A stretch of DNA of 64,000 bases from Acholoe squamosa (Eukaryota; Annelida; Polychaeta; Phyllodocida; Polynoidae), in contig OX439036.1 in NCBI GenBank assembly GCA_949317995.1, positions 25,565,854 through 25,629,853 on the forward strand, in the 5' to 3' direction. The notes under the pieces were generated by a model. That model did not search any database. It saw only the letters and a program-made list of their open reading frames with translations, and was not told the origin of the DNA. Positions 15,771 to 48,989 of this stretch are shown here, one piece after another. The position numbers and the translations under genes were made by a program. Position 1 is the first letter of the stretch. Each line of letters starts with the position of its first letter.

Positions 15771-17668
15771 TTAGTCATCCTCCTCTTCCTCAACTTCTGC
15801 TACAGCCTCCATCCGCCTTTTGCGCATGTACTTGTCTTGCCATGGTACCTTTCCGTGCCGGGAGTTGAACCAGCAGCACAGGCTTTCCCGCATGGCTTTC
15901 ACACTCTGAAGCATGTTCCTCCCATGGTGAGACCTGTCAAGGCCATCCAGGCCATGATCTTCATCCCGCCACTGTCCAGGATGGACCTCGAGCTCTGGCC
16001 CTTCATAGTCGACGGATCCTGCTGGGATGTACTCTGATGGTGCTCGAGTGCGAAGGAAGTTGTGCAGGGAAACTGCTGCCATGGTTACCATTTTAACTCC
16101 CTTCGGTTCCATGTCCTGTGTACGCAGGAAGAGGCGGAATCTGGTAGCAAAAATTCCTAAAAGCATTCTCAGACATGAGACGGCCCCGAGATACTCTGTA
16201 GTTGTACACTATCTGCTCATCTCCCTGGTCTTTTACTGCATACGGCTTCATGAGATTGGTTGCTAGGGAGAACGCATCATCCCCTACCATGAAGTAAGGT
16301 AGCAAGTCCCTCATGCCATTTATCTTAGACGCTGGTGGTATGTTCAGAGGGTTCGCTGGGTCATTAAGGTCAGCGTAGAGGGGCCCTTCCTTCCATATGC
16401 GGGAATCACCTGCCTTGCCTTCTGACCCTATGTCTACATATATGAACCGGTAGTAGGCGTCTACGACAGCCATTAACACTACACTAAAATACTTCTTGTA
16501 ATTGTAGAAGGTGGTTCCACTCTTCCGGGGTTGGCGAATACGAATGTGCTTCCCGTCCACTGCCCCGATCATGTGAGGGACTTGCCACTCCTTCCAAAAT
16601 CCATCTGCGATTTCCTTCCATTCCGCTTCTGTTTGTGGGACCTGGAGGGAGGAAAGGGCAGCTTATATAGGAAGATGTAAATTATATGTTTCTTGTATAT
16701 ATCCCAGATTTTTTTGTAGCAGACAAGACCTTCGGCTAGGTGAAATCCAAGATTTTATAATTGAAACACTTCATACCCCATAGAAAAGAAAACAAAGAAA
16801 CAAACCTTCAAGAAATCTTTAAGGATGGCAGTCATGGCAATGCAGGTGTCTCTTATTATAGGGTAGACTGTTGACCCCCCCACTAAATGACCGTGGTGTA
16901 GAGTTTGACTGCTGTCTCCTACAAAATAAAAAGGAAATTAAGTCAGGTGTCTCAGATAGTTGAAAACCCAATAAAAAAGACGCTATATTAAAATACACAT
17001 TTTATCATTGATATTCTACCTTTGTAACTTCACGGGATACATTTTATATTTCATACATTTTATAGAAAATAAAACAAAAGCTCACCTAAAGCCAAATACC
17101 GTAGGGTTATGTCTAGGCGTTTCTCTGGCTTTATAGACTCTCTGAAGTTTGTGTCACGCCTGTATATCAGGGGGTAGACCTTGCTCAGGAGCTCTTTGTA
17201 TTCTCCAGGGCCCATCCTCAGAGTGTGGCGAAACTCATTCACCTCGTCCATCTGAAATTATTTTATTATATTTTTATCTCTGATAAATTTTATCTTGGAC
17301 AAATAAGGACTCACATCTGTTTTTTTATGACCACGAGCTGCTCTTCTCCTCTTGATCTCTTTAAAATAAGTGAAAACACCACCACCCCATTGAGCTCTAC
17401 TCCTGTCAGGGGAACATGAAGCCACAGACCGGTACCCCTTGACTCCTACCCCCCGAAGTAAACAAAGAGTACTACTTACTTCCAGTAGGTCCCTGTGCAG
17501 TTTAGTGAAGGTGTTTTGCTGCAGATTGTCTGTCCGGTCCTTCAAGTATGGAGCCACGTGGTACTTGTGCTTCCTCTTCTTGCCTTGAAGTATATCAGCA
17601 TCTTCCTCATCCAGTTTCATGAGTATTAAAGTGGCGTGAGCGACCACGAGCACATCTGTGGGCTCCAT
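15771..17668 (-). pseudogene. PIF/Harbinger DDE transposase, one frameshift
   Basis: Predicted exons, read from high to low coordinates, are 17,668-17,480, 17,251-17,086, 16,918-16,806 and 16,641-15,771. They have GT-AG junctions at the same positions and phases as the copy at 47,123. A HARBI1/DDE_Tnp_4 nuclease is recognised by GAVDGKH (first Asp), GSEGKAGDSRIW (second Asp) and SRGRLMSENAF (Glu). Immediately after ENAF (about 16,160) there is one extra A on the coding strand. The frame shifts and the conserved continuation (FRLFLRTQDMEPKG) is read in the next frame down to an acidic C-terminus. The three catalytic residues are kept but the last ~130 residues are lost, so the product is probably inactive. 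The start was placed at the Met homologous to copy 2; an upstream in-frame ATG at 17,695 exists. Confidence 0.88.
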
Positions 17669-21744: not shown

Positions 21745-23490
21745 CCCAGCAAATTGTCGTTATCTGTCGCCATGATTGGTCATCAATGGTGACTCCTTTC
21801 TGAGTGATAACTCACTGCATCATCTTTCGCCACTGTGTGTGAGTCTCACATGGCATGGCGATTTATCACAACAGTCGCCAACATGATCTCACTCACTACG
21901 TGAGTATGTGCCACCCCTTGTCATCCCTCACAAAGCATGGTGACTTATCACCACCATCGCCAACATGGATCTAACTCAGTGCTTGAGTATGTACCACTGC
22001 CTGTCAACTCTCAGTCAGAACGGCAGCTTATCCCAACCATCGCCAACATGGATCTGACTCATTGTGTGACTATGTACCACTCCCAGTCAGTTCTCACTCA
22101 GAATGGCGACTTATCACCAACATCGCTAATATGGATCTCACTCCCTGCGTGATTATGCGCCACTCCCAGTCAACTCTCACTCAGAATGGCAGCTTATCAC
22201 CACCATTGCCAACATGGATCTCACTCACTCCGTCAATATGTGCCACTGTTTGTCAACTCTCATTCAGAATGGCAACTTTTCACCTGCATTGCCACATGGC
22301 TCTCACTCACTGCATGAGTTTGTATCACTCCTAGTTAATCTTCTCTCAAAATGGTGACTTATCACCACCATTGCCAACATTGGTCTCACTCAATACGTGA
22401 ATTTGTGTCACTCCAAGTCGATGCTCTATGAGGATTGCATCATCTGTCACTCACTCTCACTCAAAGTGGCAACTTATTACCACCATTGCCAAAGTTGTTG
22501 AGACAGCACCACTGTTCAACATGTAGCCTATCTAGGAAGTGTGGGCATGAAGTATAAGTCCCATACGTATCAAATGTGATTTTTTCACACTGATTTCCAT
22601 GTAATACTTCAGAGTTGAATCAAACAAGATTATATAGAGAGAATATCAATTGAATTTAGATAGAGGTATCTCTAAAATGAAAGCAACTATTCATAAACAC
22701 CTTTTCTCTGGTTACAGGAAAAATACAAAGGGAAATATCAACATGAACACCTTGTCTGTGGTTAGAGGGAAGATACATATGGCAATACCTTCTCTGGCAA
22801 AACATACTTTGATCTGGCAGATGTGAGGCTGCATGATTACCAATGTCGATGATCATGAGCTTTTCATCTAACAAGGTGAATGATCACCAGCGTCGCCATC
22901 ACTGGTGAGTCTGAGTGATCACCACTCTCGCCATCCATGGTGAACCTGCGCTATGACGTGGTGCGCGTTTCATCTAGAGAGGTGAGTGATCAACCGCCTT
23001 GCCATCCCTGGTGAGTGTGGGTGATCAAGTTCCTCACCATCTGTGGTGAACCTGTGCTATCACAAGGTATGAGTTTTATCTAGCAGGTGACTGATCACAA
23101 TCCTTGCCATCCGTGGTGAATGTGCATTATGACGTGGTGTGTGTCTCATCTAGCAAAGTGAGTGATCACTCATGTCGCCATCCCTGGTGAGGACGAGTGA
23201 TCACTCATGTCGCCATCCCTGGTGAGGATGAGTGATCACGATCCTCGCCATCCCTGGTGAACATGTGCTATGACGAGGTGCATGTTTCATCTAGCGAGGT
23301 GAGTGATCACCCGCGTCGCCATCCCTGTTGAGTCTGAGTGATCACCATCCTCGCCATCTGAGGTGAGGCCATGTGATCACCACCATTGCTATTCCTGGTG
23401 ATCTTGTGCTATAGCGTCGTCGTGTTCCATCTAGCGACATGTGTGAGCCACTTCACACAGGTTGACGAGGAGTCACGACAATTTGCTGGG
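21745..23490 (+). mobile_element. 1.7-kb inverted-repeat element of tandem repeats, copy 1
   Basis: Begins CCCAGCAAATTGTCGT and ends with its inverse ACGACAATTTGCTGGG. The left half is a degenerate tandem array (period ~70-75 bp; ACTCAGAATGGC, TTATCACCACCAT, GCCAACATGGATCTC). The right half is a second array (GAGTGATCAC, TCGCCATCCCTGGTGA, TTTCATCTAGCGAG). A non-repetitive centre (about 22,500-22,870) lies between. A nearly identical copy lies at 54,366-56,023 on the other strand. No transposase, so it is non-autonomous. Target duplication unresolved (AA/AA here, AT/AT there). The open frames inside are by-products of the repeat. Confidence 0.8.
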
Positions 23491-26400
23491 AATTGTCCGT
23501 ACATCAGTTAATGTCCAATTGCTGTAAGAGATGGATAATGAAAAGCAATGAGTGATGTCTTGGACTGTTTATGCTTTGTCACATTAATTGTAAACTGATA
23601 TGACTTTGTGAAAAGTTATAGGTGTTACCTGTCTTAAAAGCTCCGATGTAAAGAAGGCTTATTTTCTATCAACATGGCTTATGAAAAAAAGTGGCGTAAT
23701 GAAAATGGAAAATTTATGTTATCCAAAGCTAATCGCTATACCACTCTACACACTACATGCCTTTACGTAAGTGGCGGGAGGTTATTTTGTCAAAATGAAG
23801 TTAGCAATGCAGAACCCTGCCTAAAAGATGGTAATGATCATGACAAACAATAATCTGACCTTTTTTTTGTTAACACTAAACCCGTCCCCGTATGTTTGTC
23901 AAATTTGATTCCATCATTTAATCCTTCAGGGTCTGAGCCATAAGAATCACATATAAATAACACCAAGGCAACAAAACGAGCTTTTTTGATTGCTCTGAAA
24001 AATCCAAAATGATCATTACAGACTGAAAATAGCACTATTAGACCTATTACACAGAATTAAACATAATTACCAATCAAATGTATATTGCAAACACTTTGGA
24101 ATAGTGTATGGAGTTAGTTTGTACCAAGGAAAGATATTTTCAGCACTTTTGACAAATCCACAATGGTCTTCATTATCTAAATATTTTATTTGGATTATAA
24201 AATTAAGAACTAAATCAGTAGTTATAATTTACTTCTTGGGCAGATGATATAGTTATATTCAGAGATTGGAAAGTTCAAGGACTGCTGTCTGAGGAAGTAA
24301 AGTATTCAAAGCATGAAGTCCAAAATAGAAGAAAACAAAGAGGCAGTTTCCAATTTTCTGTCCGGGGAAATGAGGGATTAAAGAAATTGAATGGAAGTGA
24401 GGGTTAATTGTCACATCATTCTTTAAGGTCATGGCCTAGACATAGTTTTAGAATACATAAATATAAGTGAAAGAGGAGCAACAGAACTCAAGTACTACCC
24501 TTTTTGGGAAATTAATTATGTGAATTTATATCATGGCATCGGTCTGTCAGGCTTCTGCAGGGATATTTATATGCGAGACTAGTCAGATCTACTTCAATAG
24601 TCTTTCAGTGCATATCCAGTTTCACTTGTTTTTATTTGCCTGCAGCAGGAGGGAATACTGTCATGTCTCACTGCAGTGGAGTTATAAAATTATCCTTATT
24701 GTATTCTAGTATTCAATAGCTAGTCCAATTTGAAATTGGATTCTTCTAGACTGTGGATTCAAAACACATGAAGGTCTATTATATTAATTAAACTGAATTC
24801 GAAACCAGTACATTAAGCAAAACTATGCTTCATTGTGAGCTCCATATCCCTGCTTTTACAATGTACTTTTATTGACATATTCCACTACTAATTGTGAGTT
24901 GTAAGTCTTTCATGATGATTCGGCAGTCCTCAGTTGTTTAATCCAGGGCATCTACATCTCAGACTGCTTTGAATACCCCTCCCTACATTACAAAGCCAGT
25001 TTTCGTTCACTTTGCTATGATGAAATGATTTTCAATGCCAATCCATGGACCTCAAACATTTCTCATTGCAACTACATGATAAGAATTTGTTGGATTTGTG
25101 ACCAATGATAGTCTTAGGAGGCCAAGGCTTATAGACCTATGCCCTCTAATCTATTATTAGGGTAGCACTTGGTCCCGTTCAAGACTACATTAGATTTTGC
25201 CAAACAGGTTTTTTTATGTCATTCCCACAGAAACTGTGTCATTTCTGCCAATTTAATTTTTTTTGAAACAGTGAAAATTAGTCTGGTTGGGGCAGATTAT
25301 TTTATACATCACACAAAGGTGTAGTCATGCACATTGTTTATGATATTTTATACAATAAGCTTTAAAATGAAATCGGCCTACTTGGCAGCCATCTTGGCTC
25401 ATTTCTTTTCACTGATTTCAAAAGCACTACAAATATTGTTGCTCCTAGCTGGGAATTAAGGGCAATTTCAGACTTCTTTTGTACCTTTGATTTTTAACCT
25501 TTTGGGTGGTCTATATTTTATGACGTGATTAGATTGCTCACAATGATGAAGGATATATGATGGGATCATGTTTGAATACTCAAGTAATTGCCATTTTCAA
25601 ACAATATTTTTTTATACCTTTCTTTTCAAATGTACGAAACATCGGAATAACACATGAGATCCTGTACTAAAGTTATTTTTACAAGTAAGCAAATGATCAT
25701 GACAATTTTCTGGGTACGTTTAAGAAAAAGGACACGACTTCTGCTATTTGATTTGATCGAAGATATAACAAATTAAACTTTCTTTCAGCCAAAATATCAA
25801 CAGTTTTCCCGAAATGCTATATGTCACAGATAAATGAATGTATTTTTAAGATTAACCGGACAAAATATTGCAGATTTGTCACGACTTTGATTCAATAGAA
25901 TCTATCTACCTTAAGTTGTTTCTCATTGTGGCACTCATATAACCCTCTTCTGAGGGTCTTGCCAAATACCTTTCCTTCTGAAAGTCTCTTTTATATATTT
26001 GGCAATTAATACTCTCAGTTGTAGTGCAGCATGCTATGCTATTTTCAGTTGAAGGTGCTAGACTTTTAAGTAACATCATGGCATCTAAATGCGTTCCAAT
26101 TCTTATAGCAGCACCCATCCTTAGCCTAGCTTATCTCCCCCTTGTACTACATCTGGCCACATCAGTCATATTACCCAACTCGACCCATCTCCACACCCTT
26201 AGCAACGCCCTCGTGCCGTCATATCAGCCAACATCAATACCAACCACTATGTGCCCTATGTTTTACACCAGCAGCCACCTATTGCTTGTAGAAGTAGGCC
26301 CAGGGTATGTCCTTTGTTGGTGATGAACATCTGCCCTTAGGACATGCTTTTTTGGGAGGGGCAGAAAGATGGCTTACCCAGCTCTGGTAGTTACCCTATG

Positions 26401-27195
26401 TACCTCCTCTTAAGGAGACCTGTATCAGCTTTATCCCCCATGGAGGGTCAGACATGTGTATAGAATGGACTGGTTATGACAAAGTACCCCCAAAATGCCT
26501 CCTTAAAGCAGCCAAAACACAGAACATTTGGGACATATTGGCTGGTTCCAGAGATCATTTCTCCCTTATGTAGCTCATACAGGGGTATTTGTCTTATCGT
26601 AAATGGCAATTCACATACGTATAGCTTTGTTTATTGACACTTCAAACTGCCAACTTGTATGATCTAATGTCTTGTTGTGTGCGTTTGGTCCATATCACTG
26701 CTCTTTACATTTGACGTCTTTTTCTCCTCCACGCTATTTTAGGCCCAGAACATGCTTAACGATCGGGAAGATGGTCGGTCATAATTCCTGGATGATTCAA
26801 GTATTGCACATCAAAATTGGCTGCAGAATCACCCATTGAGGTGCTTGCTATTTGGCATAATTCAAGGTCATGTTGTTTACAGGGCATGAGTAGTACGGTT
26901 GCTTGCAGCAAAAGCTTTCATTTTAGATTCAGTCATCTATCAATAATTGGACAATTTTAGCATAATGAAACAACCTTCACCTTTAAAACTCGGATATTCT
27001 CCTGCTTTCCCAAACCTTCTCTTTCTCAGTGAAATCCTCATGGTATCAAATAATGTTTATGCACACAATCATTTCCTATGATAGTATGATCATACAACAT
27101 AAATTATATGATGACATCACACCTCGCACATCTCAAATACAATTTCCGTTGTAATAATAACACTGAAAGTGCTTTTAATCAGCCGTTACTGTGTC
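23491..27195. other. 3.7 kb without recognisable feature
   Basis: A+T-rich DNA with many homopolymer runs. A 99-codon ORF at 26,024-26,323 has no ATG-driven or domain support that I can name. Nothing else seen. Confidence 0.55.
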
Positions 27196-27925
27196 AGTAG
27201 TATAGTATGTATCGGAACGGGACTATAGCTAATCTAAGGATATTACTCACTGGGGATGCAGCCAATCAAAGGCCTCCCTTTTGGTGGGAAATTCAAATGT
27301 GGGGTCACGTGACCTAGACCCCCCGTGGTGTGGCGCCAAAATGGACCAATCAGAACCCTCCCTTTTGGCAGGAAATTGAAATAGTCACGTAACCCAAACC
27401 CCCTGTGGTGTGCTGCCAAAATGGAGCCTCTGATTGGCTGGCTGTTTAGGTCATGTGACCTCTATTATGCAAATAAGGTCACATGACCTAATTTGAATGG
27501 ACCAATCAGAGGTCATCATTTTGGTGGGAAATTTGAAAAAGTTGGTGACGTGACTCTTTTTTTTTTAAAAATCTTTTGCCAAAATGGAGACCTCTGATTG
27601 GTTGGCTGTCCACACGTCATACCGTCAGTTGTATGCAAGCAAGTAGTTACGTGACCTTATTAGCATAAAGAGGTGTGGTTTATTATGTAGATGAGAGTGT
27701 GACTTTAGTGAGATATTTTTTATATAAATAAAAAAAGGCAAGCTGAAAGCTTGCCAAGAGAAAAACAAAAAAAAAGAAAAAAAACTAGGAAATATTTGGG
27801 GAGGGGGGCCCTTGGGTTGGGGGGCCTTTGGGGGGACCATTGGGATTGGGGGGCCTTGGGTGGGAGGGCCTCTTTTTTTTTGGAAACCCGCCCCTTGGGT
27901 AGAGGCGGGTTTACTAAAAGTAAAA
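27196..27925 (+). repeat. Left TIR of Polinton
   Basis: Matches the inverted right end over its whole length except for one extra 84-bp unit (27,262-27,345 is duplicated at 27,346-27,425) and small gaps. It carries repeated inverted CCAAT boxes (ATTGG/CCAAT), CCAAAATGG blocks, E-box-like TCACGTGAC/TCATGTGAC and one octamer ATGCAAAT (27,467-27,474). The inner end is a G-rich tract followed by an imperfect AAACCCGCC/GGCGGGTTT hairpin. Confidence 0.88.
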
Positions 27926-28258
27926 TTTACATAAGGTAGTTAAATATTAAATAGAAATACAATAGAACCCACATATGGAGTAGTACACATTCACTTTTTA
28001 TTTGTCATAATTTCATTTCATTTTTTTTTTCACATACAAACTATCTTGGTGTCTTATCTATACATGAATCATGATTCATTGTGGGTGGTCTTTGTTTAGT
28101 TCATATATGTTGTCCCTGGTGAATCTACGATGGTGTCTGGTGTATATATGTTGTTTCTCATTCATCTACTGTGTCCTCCGACATTACAGCGTTAGAAAAC
28201 ACAGAAGCTGTTGTTCAAAAGGAAAAACTCCTCCACGCTTCATTCTGAAAAGCTGCAA

Positions 28259-28705
28259 CTAGTTGTCCAGAGAGTTCAATTTCTTCACTATTTCCGTCAG
28301 CAAAATTTTGCTCTGTGGACTTAGGATCATACCTTCCGAGGCCAATGGGCAGGTAGGAGACGGTCTGAAATGCTTCACGGCGATGTCGTCACTTTCTAAC
28401 CATGTGTTTATAGCAATGCCACATTGGTAGTATTGAACAAGGTCCTTACCTCCAATGTAAAAGAATCTGTGGGCAGCAAGTTTCTCTGTGAAAGGACGGG
28501 GTTTATTCCACATAATTGTGTTGAAAGTTTTGAGGTGGTAAATGAGACACCAGAGACATGACGTGAGTGGTTCATATAGATGTGCATAATCCCCTTTCCA
28601 GCTGCATACTCTCCGTCTCCACCACTTTCCTGTGTAGCGACTTGAGATGTGATTCCCGTGGTGCACACCTCCGCCTCCTTTGCATACTTCACCACGCCCT
28701 TCCAC
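28259..28705 (-). CDS. BIR-domain (IAP-like) protein, partial or degenerate
   Basis: The minus-strand ORF contains a BIR signature at about residues 57-121. It includes the TGEKLAAHRFFYIGG-like block that corresponds to LA..GFFYTG in BIR domains, then a metal site with exact C-x2-C-x16-H-x6-C spacing. The first Cys is replaced by Tyr-92 (TAC, plus 28,430-28,432), one transition from TGC; Cys-95, His-112 and Cys-119 remain. BIR domains bind caspases or IAP-binding motifs and inhibit cell death; loss of one zinc ligand probably weakens the fold. No good ATG starts this frame (the first codon is GTG). A second frame (28,408-28,695) looks equally protein-like upstream of the BIR, so a frameshift or splice near 28,550 is likely. 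It lies 61 bases downstream of the death-domain gene on the same strand, perhaps in one transcript. Confidence 0.7.
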   Translation of the reverse strand: MEGRGEVCKGGGGVHHGNHISSRYTGKWWRRRVCSWKGDYAHLYEPLTSCLWCLIYHLKTFNTIMWNKPRPFTEKLAAHRFFYIGGKDLVQYYQCGIAINTWLESDDIAVKHFRPSPTCPLASEGMILSPQSKILLTEIVKKLNSLDN

Positions 28706-28766
28706 GATTACTCTCCATGTCTCATCTCTTTTTCTTTGATTTCAAAGTGAAGCAATATATATCTGG

Positions 28767-29375
28767 TCACGCCAACCTTCTCATGTCATCCATCAGCACT
28801 CGAATGAGCTGATGATGTGTACTATTGGGTTTAGCTTGCCACATTTTCAACACTCTGAAGGCGTGGAGAGATATATCTTGTTTCGGTTGTTGAGCAATAC
28901 TATTTAGCTTTTCAGACGTCAAGCCTAAATACGTCCCCATATCTTTCCACTCCCTGGATAGAGATTCACACATGGTGACAAAGTGCCTCTCCATTAAAAA
29001 CTGGTCGGGGTTGTTGTAATCCAATTTGTACGTCTTGAAAAAGCTCTGCGACTTAAGTAACAGATCTTGTCAATGAACACTCATGTAGTAGTGGTGGAGT
29101 TCTCCCCATCTGGCATGAGGCATAGTTTTAGAACACCTAGTTTGGAACATCTCCATACACATATCTTGCACCTTCTTGATAACAACCATCTCCTGCAGAC
29201 GATCATAGGCGATGTCTAAGTAGATTCCCAATTTCTTTCAAGATCCAACTAACAGCCTTTCTATATCATGAAGCAAACGATCGCTATATGTAAATTTCAT
29301 TTCACACATGATATCCTGTACACTCACTTCACATACGTCAGAGTCAGATAGGGAGGGATTATTTTCAAGACTCAT
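28767..29375 (-). pseudogene. Tandem death-domain protein, two premature stops
   Basis: One reading frame runs from an ATG at 29,375 to the stop at 28,767 with two in-frame TGA codons (29,238-29,240 and about 29,070). The C-terminal part is a clear death domain: SREWKDMGTYLGLTSEKL with the conserved Trp, then LHAFRVLKMW and LIRVLMDDMRRLA. The stretch around the first TGA has the same layout (stop-KKLGIYLDI, then KVQDMCMEMF and RWGELHHYY), which suggests a more diverged first death domain whose conserved Trp codon became TGA. Death domains form homotypic complexes in apoptosis and innate signalling (FADD, MyD88, RIPK1 type); a viral decoy or modulator role is inference. A TATATAAA on the minus strand (29,541-29,549) lies about 170 bases upstream of the ATG. 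Confidence 0.75.
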
Positions 29376-29540
29376 CTCGTCTGCAAAAACTTCAGAAATT
29401 ACTTGATGAAGGTCAGTAGGCGGGCAGGTAGGCAGGCAGCTGGCGGGTAGGTGGTGCTGGTCATGGTAAAGGAAGTGGCGGTAGACGCGGTAGTCGCAGT
29501 GGTCAGCAGTGATATATCCTTCCAAGAGAAATTGGGGTGC

Positions 29541-29549
29541 TTTATATAG
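29541..29549 (-). promoter_or_regulatory. TATA box of the minus-strand cassette
   Basis: CCTATATAAA on the minus strand, upstream of the death-domain gene. Together with the + strand TATA box at 30,341 it frames a 0.8-kb non-coding divergent promoter region. Confidence 0.5.
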
Positions 29550-29624
29550 GGTGTTCTAAGTCTATTCCCAGCTGGATACTTACCACCACCTTTTCCTTTC
29601 TGTGTAGCATCTTATCAGAATGAG

Positions 29625-30300
29625 CCTTTTGAATTTGTTAACATCAAACAGGAGGAAAGACACTGTGACAAGTGTATTTGGTGAAATTAGGGGTGATTGC
29701 TTTCATTCTGTGTAGCAGCTTATCTTTTAGATCTGTTGACATAAAACAGGTGGAAAGACACTGTGATAACTGTATTTTGGTGGGATTACAGGGAGTTAAA
29801 ACTGTGATAATTAGCTTAATCCACTTTACAGGTGTGAGGCAGGCTCGCTCGTTAAGGTATTATGAGATTCCTTAATTTTTTACTTCTCTCCTTGTTAACA
29901 GGGGGTGTGTTATTGCGACCAACTTCTCTTTGAAGTTTTCTAATCCTATTTAGACGAACTTTCATCTGGATCCTCCTACAGTTTGGTTTACCTGTGGAGG
30001 GCAGGTGAAATTAGATTTATAGATACCCTACCGAGTGAAGATCTCTGTGATCATAGGATTAGAGCTCTTTTCTAAAAGTTATCAAAAGCCGACTTTGATC
30101 CTGCTGGAACTTTTTTTTTTCCACCTACCCTTTGATGATCTAAGAATGGAGTGAAGTTTTTATCTGGATTCTCCTATTGTTTATTTTCCCTGTGGAGGAC
30201 AGGTGAAATTGGATTTATCGGAGTCCTACCGAGCAAAGGTCTCTTCTGTTGCAACTACAGGATTAAGCCTCTTTTCTAAGAGACGTCAAAGCCTCCTTTC
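29625..30300. promoter_or_regulatory. Divergent control region with internal duplications
   Basis: Two direct duplications: about 29,625-29,680 repeated at 29,738-29,795 (GGAAAGACACTGTGA blocks), and about 29,955-30,095 repeated at 30,155-30,300 (TCTGGAT, CTGTGGAGG, CAGGTGAAATT, CCTACCGAG blocks). It lies between oppositely oriented TATA boxes and has no convincing ORF. Probably the enhancer/promoter of the element's accessory genes. Confidence 0.45.
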
Positions 30301-30340
30301 ATCTATTCAAACTGCACTAAGCGACTTTTCTCCAGAGGCG

Positions 30341-30348
30341 TATATAAG
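30341..30348 (+). promoter_or_regulatory. TATA box of the + strand repeat-rich ORF
   Basis: GCGTATATAAGG, 56 bases before the ATG at 30,397, which sits in a good CACCATGA context. Confidence 0.55.
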
Positions 30349-30396
30349 GGAGGGAGAAAAATTTCATTCACTCACACTCTCTTTGCAACCCTCACC

Positions 30397-30651
30397 ATGA
30401 GTAGAAGACCGTCTACGTTACAGCTCTCGCAGTTGCTCCTGCTTACAACCCACATGGTGAAACTGGTGGTGGTGTTACTGCTGCTGGTGCTGCTGGTGCT
30501 GCTACTGCTGCTGCTGCTGCTACTACTGCTGCTGGTACTGCTGCTGCTGCTGCTACTGCTGCTGATAACAACGGAGCTACTGTTGACGGTGGGTCTCATG
30601 CATCTCCTTACTGGACACCGATGTTTTATACCCCCTTTGCTGCTGCTGCTA

Positions 30652-30684
<33 letters not shown>

Positions 30685-30971
30685 ATGCTGATGTTGATGC
30701 TGCTACTACTGTTAATGCTGATGGTAATGCTGATGCTGATGCTGATGCTAACGCTGATCATTATCACCCTCACGCTGGAGAAGTCCGTGCTGGTGCAACT
30801 ACAGCTGGCGTAGACACACATGATTGCAGCCATACGGATTATTTGGAGACCCACCACTTGGTAGAAACAGAGGAGGAGAAAACGGAAACGCAGGAAGAGT
30901 TGACTTCTCCAGCGGTTGCTCAAAGATCACCCGATCTACTCACCACCGCTATCATGTCCACTTTGCTATAA
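30397..30971 (+). pseudogene. Repeat-rich Polinton ORF (Ala/Gly or Leu tract)
   Basis: The ATG at 30,397 opens a short basic start (MSRRPSTLQL). It then runs through a (CTG/GCT)n tract, which reads as Leu in the ATG frame and as Ala/Gly in the frame two bases on. After the tract the second frame (to 30,971) gives a normal-looking acidic C-terminus (TEEEKTETQEELTSPAVAQ). A frameshift near 30,425 is therefore likely and the Ala/Gly frame was probably the original one. The opposite strand reads Ser-rich and is a shadow. Function unknown; it could be a virion core or minor structural protein, but nothing proves this. A non-LTR insertion follows directly. Confidence 0.45.
30450..30760 (+). repeat. 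Imperfect CTG/GCT trinucleotide tract
   Basis: Two long blocks of CTG interrupted by CTA, GTG and GAT units, joined by about 90 bases of non-repeat. Confidence 0.85.
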
Positions 30972-30993
30972 AGGAAATTGATAAAAATAAGGC

Positions 30994-32445
30994 ATGGACG
31001 GAATAAGAGGAGATATACTACATTGTGCATTATTGTTGTTGATAAATCAATTCACTCATCTGATACAAATTAGTCTGGACAGGGGTATTTTTCCAAAATG
31101 TTGGGCAAAGGCAGTTGTAAGACCATTACCTAAGGATGGAGACTTAGCAATGGTAAAAAATTGGAGACCAATATCAATACTACCAATGCCATCAAAAGTC
31201 ATTGAGAAAATTATGTATTATTACTTATGTGAAAGTATGAAGAAAAATGGTACTTTTTGTGACAACCAATATGGTTACAAAAAAGGGACGGGTACTGGTG
31301 ATGCCACTTTTGACTTTGTTAATGAGCTTTATGAATGTAGAAACAATGGTCTAGTAACAGGGGCCCAATTTATAGACTTCACTAAAGCATTTGATAGTGT
31401 AATACATTCAAAATTGCTAATTAAACTCAGTAAACTTGGTTTGAGTAAGTCTAATTTTCTATGGTTTAAACGTTACCTGGAAAATAGAAAACAACAAACT
31501 AGCTATGGTAATAAATTGTCCTCAAACCAAGATATTGATTACGGTGTTCCTCAAGGATCAGTTTTTGGTCCCCTGTTGTTTGTCCTATATATTGATGATG
31601 TTGTTAAAGTCTTAAAAAAATGCAAGATTAAACTGTATGCTGATGACATTGTGATTTATAGTTCTAACAAAGATGCAGACTTGGTTACTGAGAATTTGAA
31701 TGAGGATGTAATTAACTTTAAATGTTGGATTATCGAAAACAGACTAACAGTAAATCCAAGTAAAACAAAATTTATGTGGTTTTGCAGTGCTCATAAATAA
31801 AAAAGATGTCCGGATTCTACTATAGACTTCAATGGCAGCACTGTGCAAACTGTCACCTTCTTTCCATACCTAGGTGTACATATTGACAGTAAACTTAGTT
31901 TTGATAAACAGATTAAAATTATTAAGAGAAATGTATGCAATATACCTTTTAGGTTTGCTAAGTTAAGAAAGTTTTTGACACAAGAGCAATGTGTAAAGAT
32001 ATACTGTTGTACAATCAGACCGATAATAGAATATTGTTCATTCATAAGTACCAGTTGTAATGAGGATGGTCTTGCAGCATTACAACAACTGCAAAATAGA
32101 GCTCTTAGAGTTTGTCTGAAATGCAATATTAGACGGTATAGTGTTAAGGAGTTGCATGTGTTAGAGAAAAGATTTGACACGCTATTATTATGCCTAATGT
32201 ATAAGAAATCAAAGACTGTGTTAAATAAACCACAATCCTATAATACAAGGTCTTTAAGGAAGATTGTCTTTGAACTACCTAGGGTTGTTACTAGACACTA
32301 TAAAAGATCGCCATGGTACAGAGGAGTGGCTCTCTGGAATACTCTACCTGAGGAGATTCAGAGAGCCACGACAAAGGTAAAATTCAAGGAGGGTGTGATG
32401 AAGAAAGAAAATATAAGGTTGAACCTGAAATTGGGTTATAATTGA
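30994..32445 (+). pseudogene. Non-LTR reverse transcriptase
   Basis: The frame runs from 30,994 to the stop at 32,445 with one premature TAA at 31,798-31,800. RT motifs appear in order: NWRPISILPMPSKVIEK, FIDFTKAFDSV (motif A Asp), YGVPQGSVFGPLLFVLYIDD (motif B) and LYADDIVIY (motif C Asp-Asp). After the stop the usual C-terminal part continues (FPYLGVHIDSKLSFDKQIK, then a thumb-like region). Upstream, IKEIDKNKA in another frame is the expected RT start, so a small deletion near 30,985 broke the frame. The clade is Jockey/CR1/L2-like; I cannot be more precise. Not functional. Confidence 0.88.
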
Positions 32446-32545
32446 TAATAAGAAGCAGGTGTAGAAACCATGTCGCTTCATATTCTAAAATTGGGTTATA
32501 ATTGACAATGAGAAGCAGGTGTAGAAACCACACCGCTTTATATTC
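32433..32545 (+). repeat. Tandem 65-bp duplication in the 3' part of the RT element
   Basis: A unit containing ATTGGGTTATAATTGA and GAAGCAGGTGTAGAAACCA occurs twice, about 64 bases apart; the first copy overlaps the end of the RT frame. Confidence 0.75.
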
Positions 32546-33119
32546 ATATTCATATCCCTTTTCATGTTTATATCCATATTGATATTGTTGATGTTCCCAT
32601 ATGCATATAACAACAGTATAACACTTGAATTATCACTTATTTGAACTCAAAACAAGATGTATCTAGCTTAATCATGACGTACTGAAATAACGTGTAGAGG
32701 CACAAATCTCTATGTATGACACATTATTATCCTTCTATTTATTTTGCTTTAAGTGTGTTTGTCTGTACTTACTATGTTAATAACCAGTTGTGTGAATATT
32801 GCCAGCCCCTATTTCTTCTCCATCTCCTGATTGTGTTCATATTGACATTTGTCAAGATCTGTGATGTTATTATACTGTTTCATTTGTGACTTTCCTTTGA
32901 AAAATCAATAAAACTTGGTCTGCTCTATGGCATTATCTAAATGAACATAGCAGTTCATTAATGCAATGAGCAAGTCCAAAAAAAAAAAGAAATCATGAAG
33001 TCTCTAAGAACCACCGGCTTCTGCTATCCACCAGGGGACACCGACATCGAGCAGAGTAGGAGCAAGTTTTTTCTTACCTCTCCGACTTACTCACCCTCCA
33101 CAACCACATCCGACAGTGT

Positions 33120-33755
33120 GTGGTTATCCTCTTTTCAAAAGTCCCGAGATACCAATGCGTTGCTCCTGTTGCTGGTTCTGCTGTTGATTCAGGTCACACT
33201 GATGGCGCTACTCTTCTTACTTTGAAACACTCTACGCGTATCAAGAGGAGTTTTACCAAGAGTGGCGACAAGGGGGCCAAGAAGAGAAAAGCGGTAGTGA
33301 AATGTGAACCACCAACACCTTTCACAGTCCCCCGATTGGAGTTCTTCATCGAAAGTTTGAAGCTGGTGATCTGGCTCGACGGGGTTAGGATCTCCAAGGA
33401 ACGCTACAGTGTCGCAAAGTGCACCTCAACGCCCACCATAAAAGTAAACCTCACCACTGACGCACTCCTTAAGCTAATAGCAACTGTCACTGACGTCCAA
33501 GAGGAGGTAAGGATACTCGACAGAGCGGTTTCCCAAGGACTACCCAATTACAACACATGGTCCGTCGTCCTGGATCCGGAAAGTGCGCTGTATGTTGCTA
33601 TCAGCTATTACAAGGGTAAGAGCGTCATCCACATGTGCAGGTACGAAGGACTCCTAAAAAATCTGACACAGGAAGGTGTGACGCTTTCGACCAAGGCACT
33701 GAAAGAACTGGGTGACAAAAAAGAGATTGTCCTTGAATTTCTTGATAAAATTTGA
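33120..33755 (+). CDS. Possible PC4-like ssDNA-binding protein of Polinton
   Basis: A 211-codon frame without ATG at its start (the first codon is GTG), so the true 5' end may have been lost to the upstream insertion. A Lys-rich segment (GDKGAKKRK) is followed by two regions of similar layout: WLDGVRISKERYSVAK, then VNLTTDALLKLIATV; and VAISYYKGKSVIHMCRYEG, then GVTLSTKALKELGDK. The second resembles the PC4 coactivator/ssDNA-binding fold (beta strands with Y/FKGK, then a helix). A tandem PC4-like protein would fit DNA replication next to a polymerase gene. This is fold-level inference only; it may instead be an unrelated Polinton protein. Confidence 0.45.
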   Translation: MVILFSKVPRYQCVAPVAGSAVDSGHTDGATLLTLKHSTRIKRSFTKSGDKGAKKRKAVVKCEPPTPFTVPRLEFFIESLKLVIWLDGVRISKERYSVAKCTSTPTIKVNLTTDALLKLIATVTDVQEEVRILDRAVSQGLPNYNTWSVVLDPESALYVAISYYKGKSVIHMCRYEGLLKNLTQEGVTLSTKALKELGDKKEIVLEFLDKI

Positions 33756-33789
33756 TTGAGACTACTTTGTGTAGGTTTGTTGGGTATAT

Positions 33790-33866
33790 AGGTGTACAGG
33801 TGAATAGATAGATATATAGATAGAAAGAAAGATTGATTGATAGATAGATAGCTAGTTAGATAGATA
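33790..33866. repeat. GATA-rich simple repeat
   Basis: Degenerate GATAGATA units directly before the polymerase ATG. Confidence 0.85.
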
Positions 33867-33867
33867 A

Positions 33868-35710
33868 ATGAAAATGGATCATCATATCTGTAAAAATTGT
33901 TTCAAAAAATTTAAAAGGGTGTACAATTATGACAGACACATGGAAAAATGTAGGGTAATACCTAAATTTTGTCCTCTATGCGACAAAGGAAAGTGCAAAA
34001 AAATCACCTGTCAACGCGAATCTCTGGACGGAGTGACTATTCCTCTGATAATACGCACTTTACCGGAGGGTGAGGAAATGTTCACCAGGTTTGATCATCA
34101 GGGACTTACCCACGTTCGAGAACTTGTTCGATATACAAATAGGGGTTTACACCACCCGTACAGTGAGAGGTCAGAACCTGAAAAACCGAGTTACCCTGAT
34201 CAGTCCACCTTCCAAAACATCGGCCGAAAGACTCTCTAAGACCCCTTTAGAGTGGTTACGCTACATGGAGTGCACCAACAGCATGAAACTTCGCCACGCT
34301 TTCAATGGAGGGGAGATATCTCTAGGTTGCCGAATAATTCGCGTAGACGGTTTTCACCCACCCTCAAATACCGTTTTCCAATTTCACGGGTGTTGGTTTC
34401 ACGCTCATGAGTGCATACCGCTGCGCAGATATTTGTGTACTTCACACAGGGATGAGAAACATGACAGAACAGCTAGAGTGACCTCTTACTTAAAAGCTCT
34501 AGGTTACAAGTTGATCATCGTATGGGAGTGTGAATGGAGAAAGATGAAACACCAGGATCCGCAGGTTATGGTGTCCGAACAACACTGGAAGTTCGACGAC
34601 TTGAAAGCGGCTCGAAATCCCATGACATAGAGTGACATCATATCCTCTGTGAAAGACAGGAAAATGTTCGGTTTGATTCAAGTGGACATTACTACTCCTC
34701 CTCAGCTATGTAAATACTTCAAAGAAATGACTCCTGTTTTCAAGAACGTGACCATTTCGAAATCCGACATAGGAACTCACATGACAGACTTTGCGAACAA
34801 CGAAAACCTGAGGAACGCTCCTCAGAGATCCTTGATAGGTAGTTACCACGGAAAAAAGATTCTCTTGGGAACACCTCTTCTTAAGTGGTATTTGGATCAT
34901 AGTTTAATAGTCACAGAAGTGCAGATGTTCATAGAATACTTTCCTAGACGACCCTTCGCCGGTTTCGCAGACAAAGTAACCGCGGCGCGAAGACGTGGTG
35001 ATGTAAACGCATACGAGAAAATTCTGTCAGACTGTTACAAGTTGATGGGAAACACCACGTACGGTAAAAGAATTTGCAACAAAGAAAAACACACCACTGT
35101 GAAATACACTAGAGGTCGAAACTTCGAATTATTGACCAATTCATGGCGGTTCAAAAAGGGTGCAGAGTTGAGCACAGATCTCTTTGAAGTCGAACTGCAA
35201 CCGAAAACAGTCAGGAACAATCTTCCTATTCAAATAGGATTCATGGTGTACCAGTACGCCAAGTTGAAAATGTTAGAATTTTAGTTCAACTTTTTGGATA
35301 AATTTATCGATCGACACGATCTCAGCGGCGAATTGTTGGACCAACTCGTGAAACCCGACCTGAGAGAATCGTACTTTAGAGAGAAATGAAACTGGATTCC
35401 AACAGTGATGTGCGATGACCACTTAGAGCTTTTCGTAAAGATAAAAACCCAAGGTGTCAAAGAATGGATCCCCCTCGCTTGTTGTCAGAAACAATACGTT
35501 CACGATCAGAGAACTCCGGGTCTTTTCAAATCCGAGTGGGAGGGTGATGGAATTCTAAGTCTGAACTCCAAGACTTACATTTGCTACGATAAAGACTCGA
35601 TAGGTGAAAGAAAATCAAAGAAATGGAGTGCAAAGGGTGTCATAAAAAACAAAACGTTCAAGAACCCAAAGACTTCTTGGATGTTCATTTACACGAGAAA
35701 AAGGGACTGA
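33868..35710 (+). pseudogene. Protein-primed-type family-B DNA polymerase relic
   Basis: The ATG at 33,868 starts a C2H2-like finger (C-x2-C ... H-x3-C in CKNCFKKFKRVYNYDRHMEKC) followed by more Cys pairs. The frame then shifts near 34,135. From there DNA_pol_B_2-type blocks follow in one frame: WLRYMECTNSMKLRHAFNGG, VDGFHPPSNTVFQFHGCW, WECEW, then LIGSYHGKKILLGTPLLKWY, KLMGNTTYGK (motif B region) and NNLPIQIGFMVYQYAKLKML. In-frame stops lie at 34,628, 35,282 and 35,387. At 35,320/35,321 the sequence passes from a DRHD block directly to LSGELLDQLV, so the segment that should carry the catalytic motif C (two-Asp metal site) is absent. RTPGLFKSEWEG and SKTYICY follow. The type and N-terminal finger fit Polinton/adintovirus polymerases, which replicate linear genomes by protein priming. 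Clearly dead. Confidence 0.9.
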
Positions 35711-36024
35711 GTTACTTATATTTGAAGCGTCGCGTACATTCTGACGAAGTGACAATGAGTCCTTTAGAGTTATGAAAATAAAAAAAAATATAATGAATTT
35801 TTTTACATTACTGTAAAGGGAAAAAAATGTAGATGTAGATAAGCCGGTGAGATAATATCCTTTGTTGTTGTATTAACTTCATCTACTACGTCCACCGACT
35901 TACCTCGTGTATCAGTGTTGAAAAAAAAACACAAGACAATGTGTAATTGCGATCCCATTTTCACTTGGGAAATAATAGATGCATCAGATGTTTTGTTCTT
36001 TAAGGCCCCCGTTGTTAAACCAAG
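35711..36024. other. Non-coding spacer
   Basis: A+T-rich, several poly-A runs. Nothing recognised. Confidence 0.6.
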
Positions 36025-36636
36025 GTGTTAATTTCAGTCATTTCTAATGTTGTATTTGATTCATTGAGTGTGTGTTTCAAAGATGCATTTCAAAGAGTGG
36101 TTGGTACCACCAAAGATAGAGCTATAGGAGTATATCAATTCCATAATGAGAACACATGTGCTTTCGTCAAAAGGCGATATATGATAGAATCGATCAACAT
36201 CTTGCTTTCTCTCTTGGAAGAGAGCTCAGACTTCTTGAGAAAGATGTGTCATTGTTCAAAGGGAACATTCGACTCTTTTTCTCAAAAGTGTGTCGACCGA
36301 ATGTTGTGTAGCAAAGTTCCTTACCCAGGTGTACCAGCTGCTCAACTGAGAAGTATCATGTCCAGACAAACTGAATGGAGTACTCGGTATAGCACTTCAG
36401 TGGATTTCACTTCTAATATCAATGAGATGTGGATAGGAAATATGGCTTACACCTATCCTTCATTTCAAGAGGGTACTAGCTCCAAAGTTGTACACCAAGA
36501 TTACACCATATACAGTCTGAATTATGACAAACAAAAGTTGAATGTGTACATCTCAATGTGTGGGTTCTGTCATGTTCCTCTCCGATATTCGACTATGTTA
36601 AATAGAGTGTGTGAACTTGTATTTAGCAACTTGTAA
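36025..36636 (+). CDS. Uncharacterised Cys-rich Polinton ORF
   Basis: A 203-codon open frame with no homology that I recognise. It has no ATG at the start (GTG at 36,025), and a TTTCAG just before could be a splice acceptor. The first internal ATG is at 36,181. Cysteines cluster around MCHCSKGTFDSFSQKCVDRM and MCGFCHVPL. Length and composition look protein-like, and it ends 60 bases before the right TIR. In autonomous Polintons this end can hold structural or accessory genes; no claim is made here. Confidence 0.45.
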   Translation: MLISVISNVVFDSLSVCFKDAFQRVVGTTKDRAIGVYQFHNENTCAFVKRRYMIESINILLSLLEESSDFLRKMCHCSKGTFDSFSQKCVDRMLCSKVPYPGVPAAQLRSIMSRQTEWSTRYSTSVDFTSNINEMWIGNMAYTYPSFQEGTSSKVVHQDYTIYSLNYDKQKLNVYISMCGFCHVPLRYSTMLNRVCELVFSNL

Positions 36637-36696
36637 ATAATAAAGTGTTAATATTATTTATCAAAATAAAAAAAATAAAAAATAAATTTGTTTGTT

Positions 36697-37304
36697 AAGT
36701 TTTTATTTTTAGTCTACCCGCCCCTACCCAAGGGGTGGGTTTCCAAAAAGGAAAAGGGGGCCCCCACCCAAGGCCCCCCCAATCCAATGGTGCCCCCAAA
36801 GGCCCCCCACCCCAAGGCCCCGCTCCCCAAATGTTTTTTCTTTTTTTTTCTTGGCAAGCTTTCAGCTTTCCTTTTTTTATTTATATAAAAAAGATCTCAC
36901 TATAGTCACACCCTTATCTACATAATAAACCACACCTCTTTATGCTAATAAGGTCACATAACTACTTGCTTGCACACAGCTGATGGTATGACATGTGGAC
37001 AGCCAACCAATCAGAGGTCTCCATTTTGGCAAAAAAAAATTTAAAAAACAGAGTCACGTCACCAACTTCAAATTTCCCACCAAAATGACGACCTCTGATT
37101 CATCCATTCAAATTAGGGTCATGTGACCTTATTTGAATAATAGAGGTCACGTGGCCTAAACAGCCAGCCAATCAGAGGGTGCCATTTTGGCGGCACACCA
37201 CATTTGAATTTCCCGCCAAAAGGGAGGCCTCTGATTGGCTGCATCCCCAGTGAGTAATATCCTTAGATTAGCTATAGTACCATTACGATACATACTATAC
37301 TACT
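36697..37304 (-). repeat. Right TIR of Polinton
   Basis: Inverted copy of the left TIR with one unit of the 84-bp internal duplication missing. Ends at 37,304; next six bases are TATGTC. The octamer seen in the left TIR is altered here (ATTCAAAT). Confidence 0.88.
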
Positions 37305-38740
37305 TATGTCTCATTACTTCATTATAATCATAACTGTAATGTGAATTAAATCTAAATTTAGTTAAATCATGGCATATTGAATAAGCCCTTTAGTCAACGT
37401 GAGAAGTAGAGCCTTTCTACAATACCTCGAAACAGCAGGTAGAACCACCACTGGTGTATAAACTATATATAATACTGACACAATGAATACACTGTCAATT
37501 GTCATGTATAGCAAATTTTTAAAGTTGACAAAAGAACATGTTAACACCAAACAAAGCTTTACTTTTCGATTTGTATGGCTTGCTAACGTTTTCTTTTTAG
37601 CTCTTTTCAGCATGCATAAAACCTTTTTTGGCAAAAAAACAAAGAAGCAAAACGTTTCAACTGTTCAAAACCATAAGTCGTGAGTTTCAAGGAGTCGGTG
37701 TACTGCAAGCTCACAAGCGTCACTCTCAGACTAAATATCCTCGATGCAATTTTTATAAAATAATATTTTCGACAAAAGTAGTTCTATGGCATAGGGACAG
37801 TATCATTGGGCTGTTGTTTTTTTTCAAATTATATCAGAGCTTGGAGTATGTTATCATGGTTTGTATGTCCTTACTTATTTGGTTCGAGATTAATGCTAGA
37901 TCACGTGACCACGATGGGCGGTACCATGTGACTACGCTGACTCCTTGATGTCTACCGTTCAAAATGTATTATGCCACTGGAAGGTGTTTTTCCACATAGG
38001 TATTAATTATACACATATAGAGGCTCAAATGTGGGACCTATGTGGAGAAAATATTTGAAAAGAAAGAAATTGTTTTTAAAAGGGCTCCGTGTAGGGTCCG
38101 TATATTAAAGCTTAATATACGGAAATTATTTGATATATCCAGATTTTTTTTATGTGGAAGCCAGGCTTAATTGCTAAAATGGACAGAATCCAGTCTATAT
38201 TCCAGAAAGCCCCCTAGGGAATTCCCTGAATGATGTCACACATGTGGCAATGACGTCACACATGCGAGAAATTTCTCAAAAGGTGCCGTATGTGGATAAA
38301 GTGATGTGCGGAATGGGTAGGGGGGTAGGGAGATGGAATGGTGGGGGTGGGTATGGCCCGTTGGGTATTAGTATATTGAAATTTGATGTTTTAGCATAGA
38401 ATAGGGAAAGCCATACCTCATGTAGATCTGTACATTATAAAAAGAGAGGCAGCACTATACCTGAGATTTGTGTTTCAGCAGTGGGGTAAATTTCATTCTC
38501 ATCTCTATAGGTGTATGTGTTTGTCACAATCTTATGTGATCCTCTGTACATGTATACCTAAATTTTGGTTTTAAAAAATCAACGGGTACGTCAAATAGGT
38601 ACATTGCATGGATTTCTGCACAGGTATGGCATGTAGTTGCTTTATTAAACACCAAGGATATTGTGGATTATAGATCAGAGTGATATCTATGGTACAGTAA
38701 AAACGCCAGGAACACCTTCAAGGTCAATCAAGCTGGCCTG

Positions 38741-48986: not shown

Positions 48987-48989
48987 GGT

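What the first reader, a model, noticed from the sequence alone, without database searches (positions are those of the whole stretch)
28259..29375. Apoptosis-type cassette (tandem death domains plus BIR) carried by a Polinton-like element
The death-domain frame and the BIR ORF lie head to tail on the minus strand between the left TIR and a putative divergent promoter, fully inside the TIRs and target duplication. Seen: SREWKDMGTYLGL with LHAFRVLKMW (death domain), and C-x2-C-x16-H-x6-C spacing (BIR). Known: viruses often encode IAP or death-fold decoys. Inference: the element carried a host-cell-death control module, with DD adaptor interference and caspase inhibition side by side. I do not know a description of this combination in Polintons.
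Basis: partly seen in the sequence, partly recalled or inferred. Interest (0 to 1): 0.88.

Follow-up and report, generated by a model that had tools for sequence, protein, structure and literature searches.

The report
Mobile element carrying cell-death-control genes
A virus-like jumping element present in many copies in an animal genome carries a recurring pair of genes resembling regulators of cell suicide, probably to keep its host cell alive while it copies itself.

Summary
The cassette is real, but the window copy is a fossil. A death domain (Pfam E 2.2e-8) and a BIR (1.6e-10) lie head to tail on the minus strand inside a 10.1-kb element with (AGT)2-ended TIRs and a 6-bp target duplication (one mismatch).

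It is not a chance host insertion. In the same genome, 26 of the 30 best BIR loci (window included; two hits weak) have the DD upstream within 1.5 kb. 27 of the other 29 have the element's TIR beside the BIR. Of 37 BIR places with a listed polymerase within 20 kb, 36 have it divergent on the 5' side. Pooled dN/dS is about 0.47 for both genes (polymerase piece 0.42).

A 10.5-kb copy with a perfect target duplication appears to have no room for capsid or integrase genes. Best reading: a capsid-less, probably integrase-dependent Polinton-type replicon with a standing anti-cell-death module. The cell-death function is inferred. Bolder: dispersed intronless 'retroposed' IAPs reported in molluscs could be such cargo; the host here is unnamed.

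The parts
27190..27195 (.). left target-site duplication TGTGTC (right copy TATGTC, one mismatch)
27196..28012 (+). left TIR, starts AGTAGT; 84-95% identical to the right TIR over blastn blocks
   Evidence: matched beside BIR in 27 of 29 other loci
28131..28534 (-). BIR gene remnant (ORF listed as 28259-28705); homology to relatives runs 28534-28232 and 28184-28131; first zinc Cys is Tyr
28770..29069 (-). C-terminal death domain of the DD gene
   Evidence: 150 of 150 scored candidates in the genome match
29073..29375 (-). N-terminal, weakly death-domain-like segment of the DD gene, in two pieces split by a stop (29238-29240)
29376..30396 (.). intergenic region with TATA-like sites at 29548 (-) and 30341 (+); 85-94% identical in its main alignments to other copies of the window's subfamily
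30397..30968 (+). Ala-rich N-terminal part of the rightward gene
30991..32442 (+). LINE reverse transcriptase fragment inserted into the element (not part of it)
   Evidence: RVT_1 E 5.3e-35
33060..33752 (+). C-terminal part of the rightward gene, weakly PC4-like
   Evidence: PC4 E 0.17 in L045, below cut-off
33868..35707 (+). pieces of the polymerase gene: zinc-finger-like N-terminus, Vsr-like endonuclease stretch and motif B; the exonuclease motifs and motif A were not found in this copy
36025..36636 (+). last rightward ORF, unknown function, runs into the right TIR
36520..37304 (-). right TIR
37305..37310 (.). right target-site duplication TATGTC

Best explanation
The cassette is standing cargo of a high-copy, capsid-less Polinton-type replicon. 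Shown: TIR-bounded element of about 10-11 kb with order TIR - BIR(-) - DD(-) - spacer - Ala-rich/PC4-like gene(+) - polymerase gene(+) - unknown ORF(+) - TIR; DD and BIR recur side by side genome-wide; both genes show signs of purifying selection like the polymerase. Inferred: the element replicates with its own protein-primed polymerase and depends on an integrase supplied in trans. During that replication the small RING-less BIR protein acts as an IAP mimic or decoy: it binds IAP antagonists or caspases, or poisons cellular IAP/NAIP complexes through its C-terminal helix. The DD protein caps FADD/RIPK1-like death-domain assemblies. Together they delay death of the replicating cell. The window copy is a dead example of this family.
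For: Domains; all 50 listed fold matches to the intact relative's model are from entries titled as IAP, BIR or survivin structures. Cargo: DD piece upstream on the same strand in 26 of 30 BIR loci, window included, two of them weak hits (L008, L019); TIR beside BIR in 27 of 29 other loci; 67 of 150 listed DD hits have a listed BIR within 3 kb, 67/67 same strand and BIR on the 3' side, shifted control mean 0.07, maximum 1 in 300; 37 of 142 BIR places have a listed polymerase hit within 20 kb, 37/37 on the 5' side, 36/37 opposite strand, control mean 0.6, maximum 4 in 1000. Constraint: pooled dN/dS BIR 0.47 (29 loci), DD 0.47 (34), middle DD piece 0.52 (28), PC4-like 0.52 (17), polymerase piece 0.42 (14); other sense frames 0.66-1.24. 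Mobility: AGTAGT at 21 of 27 ends read; perfect duplication GAATAC in a 10.5-kb copy. A diverged subfamily (L057, polymerase 81% identical) keeps DD and BIR.
Against: No biochemical evidence for any cell-death effect. Several residues that I recall as lining the XIAP peptide groove differ in this BIR family. Fold evidence is weak: BIR model pLDDT 62, best E 0.018, none at E<=0.001, listed TM-scores (query) 0.23-0.27; DD model pLDDT 65.7 with no match at E<=0.001 and no death domain among those listed. Solved-structure sequence matches of the DD are weak (FADD E 0.003; for the 281-aa L045 frame best RIPK1 E 0.13). The second DD is sub-threshold. The polymerase has no Pfam polymerase hit, and no listed PF03175 hit in this genome lies on the element's polymerase places by eye (71 of 871 candidates scored). 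83 of 150 DD hits have no listed BIR nearby; with capped lists I cannot tell absence from non-listing. Loci were picked by protein similarity, which biases dN/dS downward for BIR and polymerase, less for DD and PC4-like; one antisense frame also gives 0.46-0.58, so the signal is moderate.
Confidence: 0.6

Rival explanations
1. The pair is functional cargo, but not for blocking apoptosis: the survivin-like build (one BIR plus a long helix) serves tethering or segregation of episomes or chromatin binding, and the DD protein is a structural scaffold.
For: The intact relatives are single-BIR proteins of 129-140 aa with a predicted C-terminal helix and no RING hit; survivin chains are among the fold matches.
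Against: Best sequence matches are NAIP, DIAP1 and cIAP/XIAP BIRs; survivin is not among the 44 listed. A death domain next door points to death signalling.
Confidence: 0.17
2. The cassette serves the host or excludes competitors: it tunes innate death signalling against other Polintons or viruses, as virophage-type elements do for protists.
For: The genome also holds many long open polymerase frames of other elements (over 1,300 aa, up to 1,582), likely competitors or helpers.
Against: No sign of domestication: most fetched loci are TIR-bounded on the BIR side, dispersed over many contigs and often broken.
Confidence: 0.1
3. Neutral passenger: a captured host fragment amplified by hitch-hiking, without function.
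For: The window copy is broken; many copies carry stops; the dN/dS signal is moderate and partly shared by one antisense frame.
Against: dN/dS about 0.47 across insertions with different flanking 6-mers and presence in two subfamilies.
Confidence: 0.1
4. Chance insertion of host DD and BIR genes into one element copy.
For: None found beyond the initial single-copy view.
Against:: the pair recurs beside the same TIRs and polymerase genome-wide.
Confidence: 0.01

Closest known systems
Polintons / Mavericks (Polintoviricetes)
   Same: (AGT)2 TIR ends, 6-bp target duplication, polymerase with B-family motifs plus an OTU-like motif; vOTU domains and inserted homing endonucleases are described for polinton pPolBs (PMC11071308, passages read); ends, duplication and gene set from PMC8097293 (passages read).
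   Different: No integrase or capsid gene found; 10-11 kb instead of about 17 kb; carries the DD+BIR pair; polymerase not recognised by Pfam.
Adintoviruses
   Same: OTU-like motif in the polymerase; [quoted passage not shown]
   Different: Defined there by Hexon and an integrase with chromodomain, neither found here; 'IAP' and 'death' had zero occurrences in that main text.
Endogenous nimavirus Nimav-1_LVa BIR family (PMC7016691, passages read)
   Same: Endogenous animal DNA virus with several BIR genes.
   Different: About 280 kb, inserts in telomeric repeats; most of its BIR genes have introns and four of six have a RING; the passages seen mention no death-domain partner.
Oyster BIRC10/BIRC11 (BIR-DD, BIR-DD-RING; PMC8917759, passages read)
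   Same: BIR and death domain linked in one molluscan gene product.
   Different: Host proteins with the order BIR then DD; here two separate genes, DD first, inside a mobile element.
Hard clam clade-1 intronless IAPs (PMC7831173, passages read)
   Same: 42 of 49 are intronless BIR genes; intronless IAPs are scattered over chromosomes; DNA transposons enriched around IAPs.
   Different: Explained there by retroposition; not compared by sequence here.
NAIP/BIRC1 BIRs
   Same: Closest solved BIR by sequence (E about 6e-30 for the family profile).
   Different: NAIP chains are about 1,400 aa; this is a 129-140-aa single-BIR protein.

Membership tests
Polinton / Maverick | Long TIRs with AGT-type ends | tested here: met
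   AGTAGT at 21 of 27 ends read
Polinton / Maverick | 6-bp target-site duplication | tested here: met
   Four copies with both ends in hand: perfect GAATAC in the C18 copy, 5 of 6 in the window, no match in L003 and L004, short derivatives
[quoted passage not shown]
   Motifs (recalled definitions) found: OTU-like 12, ExoI 7, ExoII 14, A 11, B 7 of 21 loci, C 3 of 5, none in reversed controls; no Pfam polymerase hit; listed PF03175 hits lie elsewhere
Polinton / Maverick | Retrovirus-like integrase | tested here: not met
   No rve hit among the ORFs scanned; no unassigned stretch seen for it in the C18 copy, a judgement by inspection of ORF lists
Polinton / Maverick | Major and minor capsid proteins, ATPase, protease | tested here: not met
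   Same calls; no unassigned ORF of suitable size for a major capsid protein seen; no specific capsid model was run
IAP / BIR family | BIR domain with CCHC zinc ligands | tested here: met
   Family: CCHC in 28 of 31 loci and in P0001, P0003, P0004, P0005; window copy YCHC, not met
IAP / BIR family | Caspase or IAP-antagonist binding | not testable with these tools
   needs biochemistry
Death-domain superfamily | Sequence over Pfam cut-off | tested here: met
   C-terminal domain only
Death-domain superfamily | Six-helix death fold | tested here: inconclusive
   Single-sequence model pLDDT 65.7, no fold match at E<=0.001

The most novel reading that the evidence does not exclude
Cell-death control is a core function, not an accessory, of a class of capsid-less satellite Polintons that borrow integration from complete relatives. 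Such elements could be the real source of many dispersed intronless single-BIR 'IAP expansions' that have been read as retroposition in molluscs. In this genome 17 of 20 further BIR loci that I picked from the Pfam BIR list match the element's BIR family beyond the BIR into its C-terminal helix, and one of them (L077) lies 5.6 kb from another polymerase gene (1,582-aa open frame).
Probability: 0.3. Interest if true: 0.87.

Novelty: new variant of a known kind. Interest (0 to 1): 0.76.

Why it matters
It links two literatures. Polinton-type elements in animals are usually discussed by replication and capsid genes; here a paired death-domain and BIR module appears about as constrained as the polymerase and is present in very many copies, while capsid and integrase were not found. 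That makes two open questions testable: whether endogenous Polinton-type elements manipulate host cell death, and whether IAP gene 'explosions' in some invertebrates are partly mobile-element cargo. I found no description of a DD+BIR pair in Polintons in the ten searches (open-licence full texts only; listings seen, passages read in the papers named).

Tried and rejected
Viral contigs (IMG/VR): six scans with the DD piece, three polymerase pieces (window, L057, L089), P0001 and BIR alignment A2 gave no relative. Protein database: DD piece none (its length limit excludes full-length DD proteins); BIR 2 relatives, then 5 with an alignment, 3 of them new, all from short ENA contigs without genomic context. 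AlphaFold on the DD piece was uninformative. Rfam: no hit in 20000-60000. The PC4 assignment stays sub-threshold. Looking for DD beside the other BIR/polymerase pair (L077) within 1 kb found none, so the DD partner is not general to BIR-bearing elements here. Of four polymerase loci with no listed BIR nearby, one (L057) held both DD and BIR; L055, L056 and L058 showed neither in about 6 kb. The BIR tree has only one clear host-type outgroup (L070), so the origin of the element's BIR is not resolved. Host identity: 18 contigs hold 1478.6 of 1481.4 Mb (lengths, my sum); this fits karyotypes I recall for vetigastropod snails, a guess only.

Rows dropped: I passed 142 BIR places out of those listed (second pieces of the same place left out; unlisted matches not seen), 150 polymerase places (one search reports 152 matches) and 150 DD places. 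dN/dS removed near-identical loci (under 1% different) and pairs with fewer than 120 sites. The overlap with the polymerase places was compared by eye, not by script.

Full report
What is in the window. On the minus strand, 28770-29069 encodes a death domain (Pfam Death E 2.2e-8, 34.5 bits, cut-off 22.6) and 28262-28741 a BIR (E 1.6e-10, 41.8 bits, cut-off 22.9). The best solved relatives by sequence are FADD (E 0.003) and NAIP/BIRC1 (E 6.7e-11). Both lie inside a 10.1-kb element, 27196-37304, with TIRs that begin AGTAGT and are flanked by TGTGTC and TATGTC. The (AGT)2 end and 6-bp duplication are those described for vertebrate Mavericks (PMC8097293, passages).

The copy is dead. The BIR reads Tyr where the first zinc cysteine belongs. 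Relatives match beyond its stop to 28232 and again at 28184-28131. It lacks the aligned in-frame start codon that 22 of 30 loci have. The DD frame has two stops. The exonuclease motifs and motif A of the polymerase were not found here. A LINE fragment sits in the rightward gene (RVT_1 E 5.3e-35).

Same-genome copies. The genome search with the BIR gave 986 first-look candidates, 150 scored and 215 matches. In the 30 fetched loci, window included, the DD piece lies within 1.5 kb upstream on the same strand in 26 (two weak hits, L008 and L019), any DD piece in 27, and none in 3 (L017, L020, L025). The window's left TIR is found beside the BIR in 27 of the 29 other loci (not L027, L028). With the DD as query there were 1,992 candidates, and 150 of 150 scored matched. 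Of these, 67 have a listed BIR within 3 kb, all on the same strand and all with the BIR 3' of the DD, against 0.07 in shifted controls; the other 83 have no listed BIR, which capped lists cannot turn into absence. With the polymerase piece there were 2,567 candidates, 150 scored and 152 matches. 37 of 142 BIR places have a listed polymerase within 20 kb, all on the 5' side, 36 of 37 divergent, against 0.6 expected.

Anatomy of the family. Sixteen middles (L035-L050) and four far ends (L051-L054) were fetched. In the five middles whose ORFs I listed (L036, L037, L038, L042, L045) the order is DD(-), a spacer of about 0.7-0.9 kb, an Ala/Gly/Glu-rich plus weakly PC4-like protein(+), then the polymerase gene(+), each with some broken frames or inserts; the BIR lies next to the DD on its 3' side. 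In the far ends the polymerase end was seen in three of four (L051, L052, L054), the unknown ORF of about 200 aa, whole or in pieces, in four of four, and TIR sequence in three of four (L052 and L053 to the end, L054 in part). The C18 copy spans 10,535 bp between perfect GAATAC duplications (L030, L052). Its ORF lists show no unassigned stretch able to hold an integrase or a major capsid protein (judged by inspection). A second subfamily (L057; polymerase 81% identical) keeps DD (70%) and BIR (71% to P0001), whereas L055, L056 and L058, also chosen because no BIR was listed near their polymerase, showed neither in about 6 kb. Short derivatives of about 2.4-2.8 kb hold the BIR and part of the DD between TIRs (L003, L004); their outer 6-mers do not match.

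Polymerase. No Pfam polymerase model matches its pieces. The genome-wide PF03175 search (871 candidates, 71 scored) lists other loci; by eye none lies on the element's polymerase places. The assignment rests on motifs whose definitions I recall. OTU-like, ExoI, ExoII, A and B were found in 12, 7, 14, 11 and 7 of 21 loci, and C in 3 of 5, none in reversed controls; some fetched stretches do not span all motifs. In L042 and L089 a Vsr-like endonuclease stretch lies between motifs A and B (PDB 1odg E 0.001; PHROG 13076 E 5.9e-7). Homing endonucleases inserted at different positions of polinton polymerases are described in PMC11071308 (passage).

The proteins. Four ENA proteins (P0001, P0003, P0004, P0005; 129-140 aa) are intact relatives of the BIR, with all four zinc ligands and no RING hit. 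A profile of them matches NAIP best (E 6e-30) and then DIAP1, cIAP and XIAP. The predicted model of P0001 (pLDDT 62) has a long C-terminal helix. All 50 listed fold matches come from entries titled as IAP, BIR or survivin structures, but the scores are weak (best E 0.018, none at E<=0.001, TM-scores by query 0.23-0.27). The DD gene has naturally open frames of 281 and 315 aa in L045 and L037. The C-terminal death domain is over cut-off; the N-terminal segment alone is sub-threshold (E 0.07 in L042 and L057), with a bacterial death-like model (bDLD3) at E 4e-6, exactly at cut-off, in L037. The best solved match of the L045 frame is RIPK1 at E 0.13. A single-sequence model of the DD piece was uninformative.

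Selection. Pooled Nei-Gojobori dN/dS is 0.47 for BIR (29 loci), 0.47 for the DD (34), 0.52 for the middle DD piece (28), 0.52 for PC4-like (17) and 0.42 for the polymerase piece (14). Wrong sense frames give 0.66-1.24. One antisense frame gives 0.46-0.58, which I read as a leak from constrained sense codons; the share of differences at third codon positions is 0.39 for BIR, 0.42 for DD and 0.46 for polymerase. Loci chosen by protein similarity bias dN/dS downward, mainly for BIR and polymerase. The signal is moderate.

How it most likely works. Shown: a mobile, multi-copy, TIR-bounded element with a constrained DD+BIR pair next to one TIR. Inferred: replication by its own polymerase; integration by an integrase from elsewhere, since the ends and duplications are of the Maverick type but no integrase gene was found; and cell-death delay by the two proteins. 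The genome holds many long open polymerase frames of other elements (over 1,300 aa, up to 1,582), possible helpers; their integrases were not checked.

What is not known. Host species is not given. The origin of the BIR is unresolved, because only one host-type BIR (L070) served as outgroup. Of 20 additional BIR loci that I picked from the Pfam BIR list, 17 match the family profile into the C-terminal helix, two (L075, L076) match but their frames end after the BIR, and L070 is of host IAP type. Several of the 17 fall in the element's own clades in the tree, and others include members of a repeated BIR trio near contig ends. One (L077) lies 5.6 kb from another polymerase gene, without a DD within 1 kb.

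Literature. PMC7831173 (passages) reports 159 hard clam IAPs, 51 intronless; in clade 1, 42 of 49 are intronless, read as retroposition, with DNA transposons enriched around IAPs. If those genes lie inside Polinton-type TIRs, that reading changes. This was not tested. PMC8917759 (passages) describes host IAPs with BIR plus death domain. PMC7016691 (passages) describes BIR genes in an endogenous nimavirus. PMC11071296 (passages) mentions anti-apoptotic homologs in mammal-associated adintoviruses. The ten library searches showed no paper describing a DD+BIR pair in Polintons.

Noticed in passing
G000 contig ends, e.g. C10:6231, 24021, 25948; C7:24483, 41092, 43023; C1:126998600-127019085: A BIR trio (open frames of about 209, 135 and 149 aa, identical or nearly identical scores) sits near the ends of many contigs: a repeated subtelomeric element with three BIR genes, reminiscent of telomere-inserting endogenous nimaviruses. 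Three members were read (L072-L074).
   Followed up: partly
window 34052-34627 piece; L089 aa 37-103: Vsr-like endonuclease stretch embedded in the polymerase gene between motifs A and B.
   Followed up: partly
G000, e.g. C2:36205552, C10:67179134: Many open polymerase frames of over 1,300 aa (up to 1,582) from other elements, several with identical scores: young or active families.
   Followed up: no
G000:C10:67179134-67186840 (L077, L090): A different single-BIR gene lies 5.6 kb from a 1,582-aa polymerase frame; no DD within 1 kb upstream.
   Followed up: partly
L036:3065-6097: About 3 kb of tetranucleotide microsatellite inside one element copy, between the PC4-like and polymerase genes; a short version is at window 33611-33901.
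   Followed up: no
window 21745-23491 and 54365-56023: Two inverted copies (90-95% identical over the main blocks) of a 1.7-kb repeat element with AGCAAATTGTCG-type inverted ends and internal 83-141-bp tandem repeats.
   Followed up: partly
window 48111-51783 and 12806-16593: Two transposons of Harbinger type (my label): DDE_Tnp_4 E 2e-25 in the first, a 67% DNA match to it in the second, Myb/SANT-like ORFs below cut-off in both.
   Followed up: partly
window 59451-60902: LINE reverse transcriptase (RVT_1 E 2.9e-43).
   Followed up: no
L037:2723-3148: A tail of the same LINE family that interrupts the window element also interrupts this copy, near but not at the same point.
   Followed up: no
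G000:C17:14111465-14124301: Four polymerase hits at an exact 4,117-bp spacing: a tandem array of an element fragment.
   Followed up: no
L012/L013 (C1, 5.9 kb apart); L020 (C6) and L021 (C5): Copies sharing the same flanking 6-mer, so probably duplicated with their flanks rather than independently inserted.
   Followed up: no
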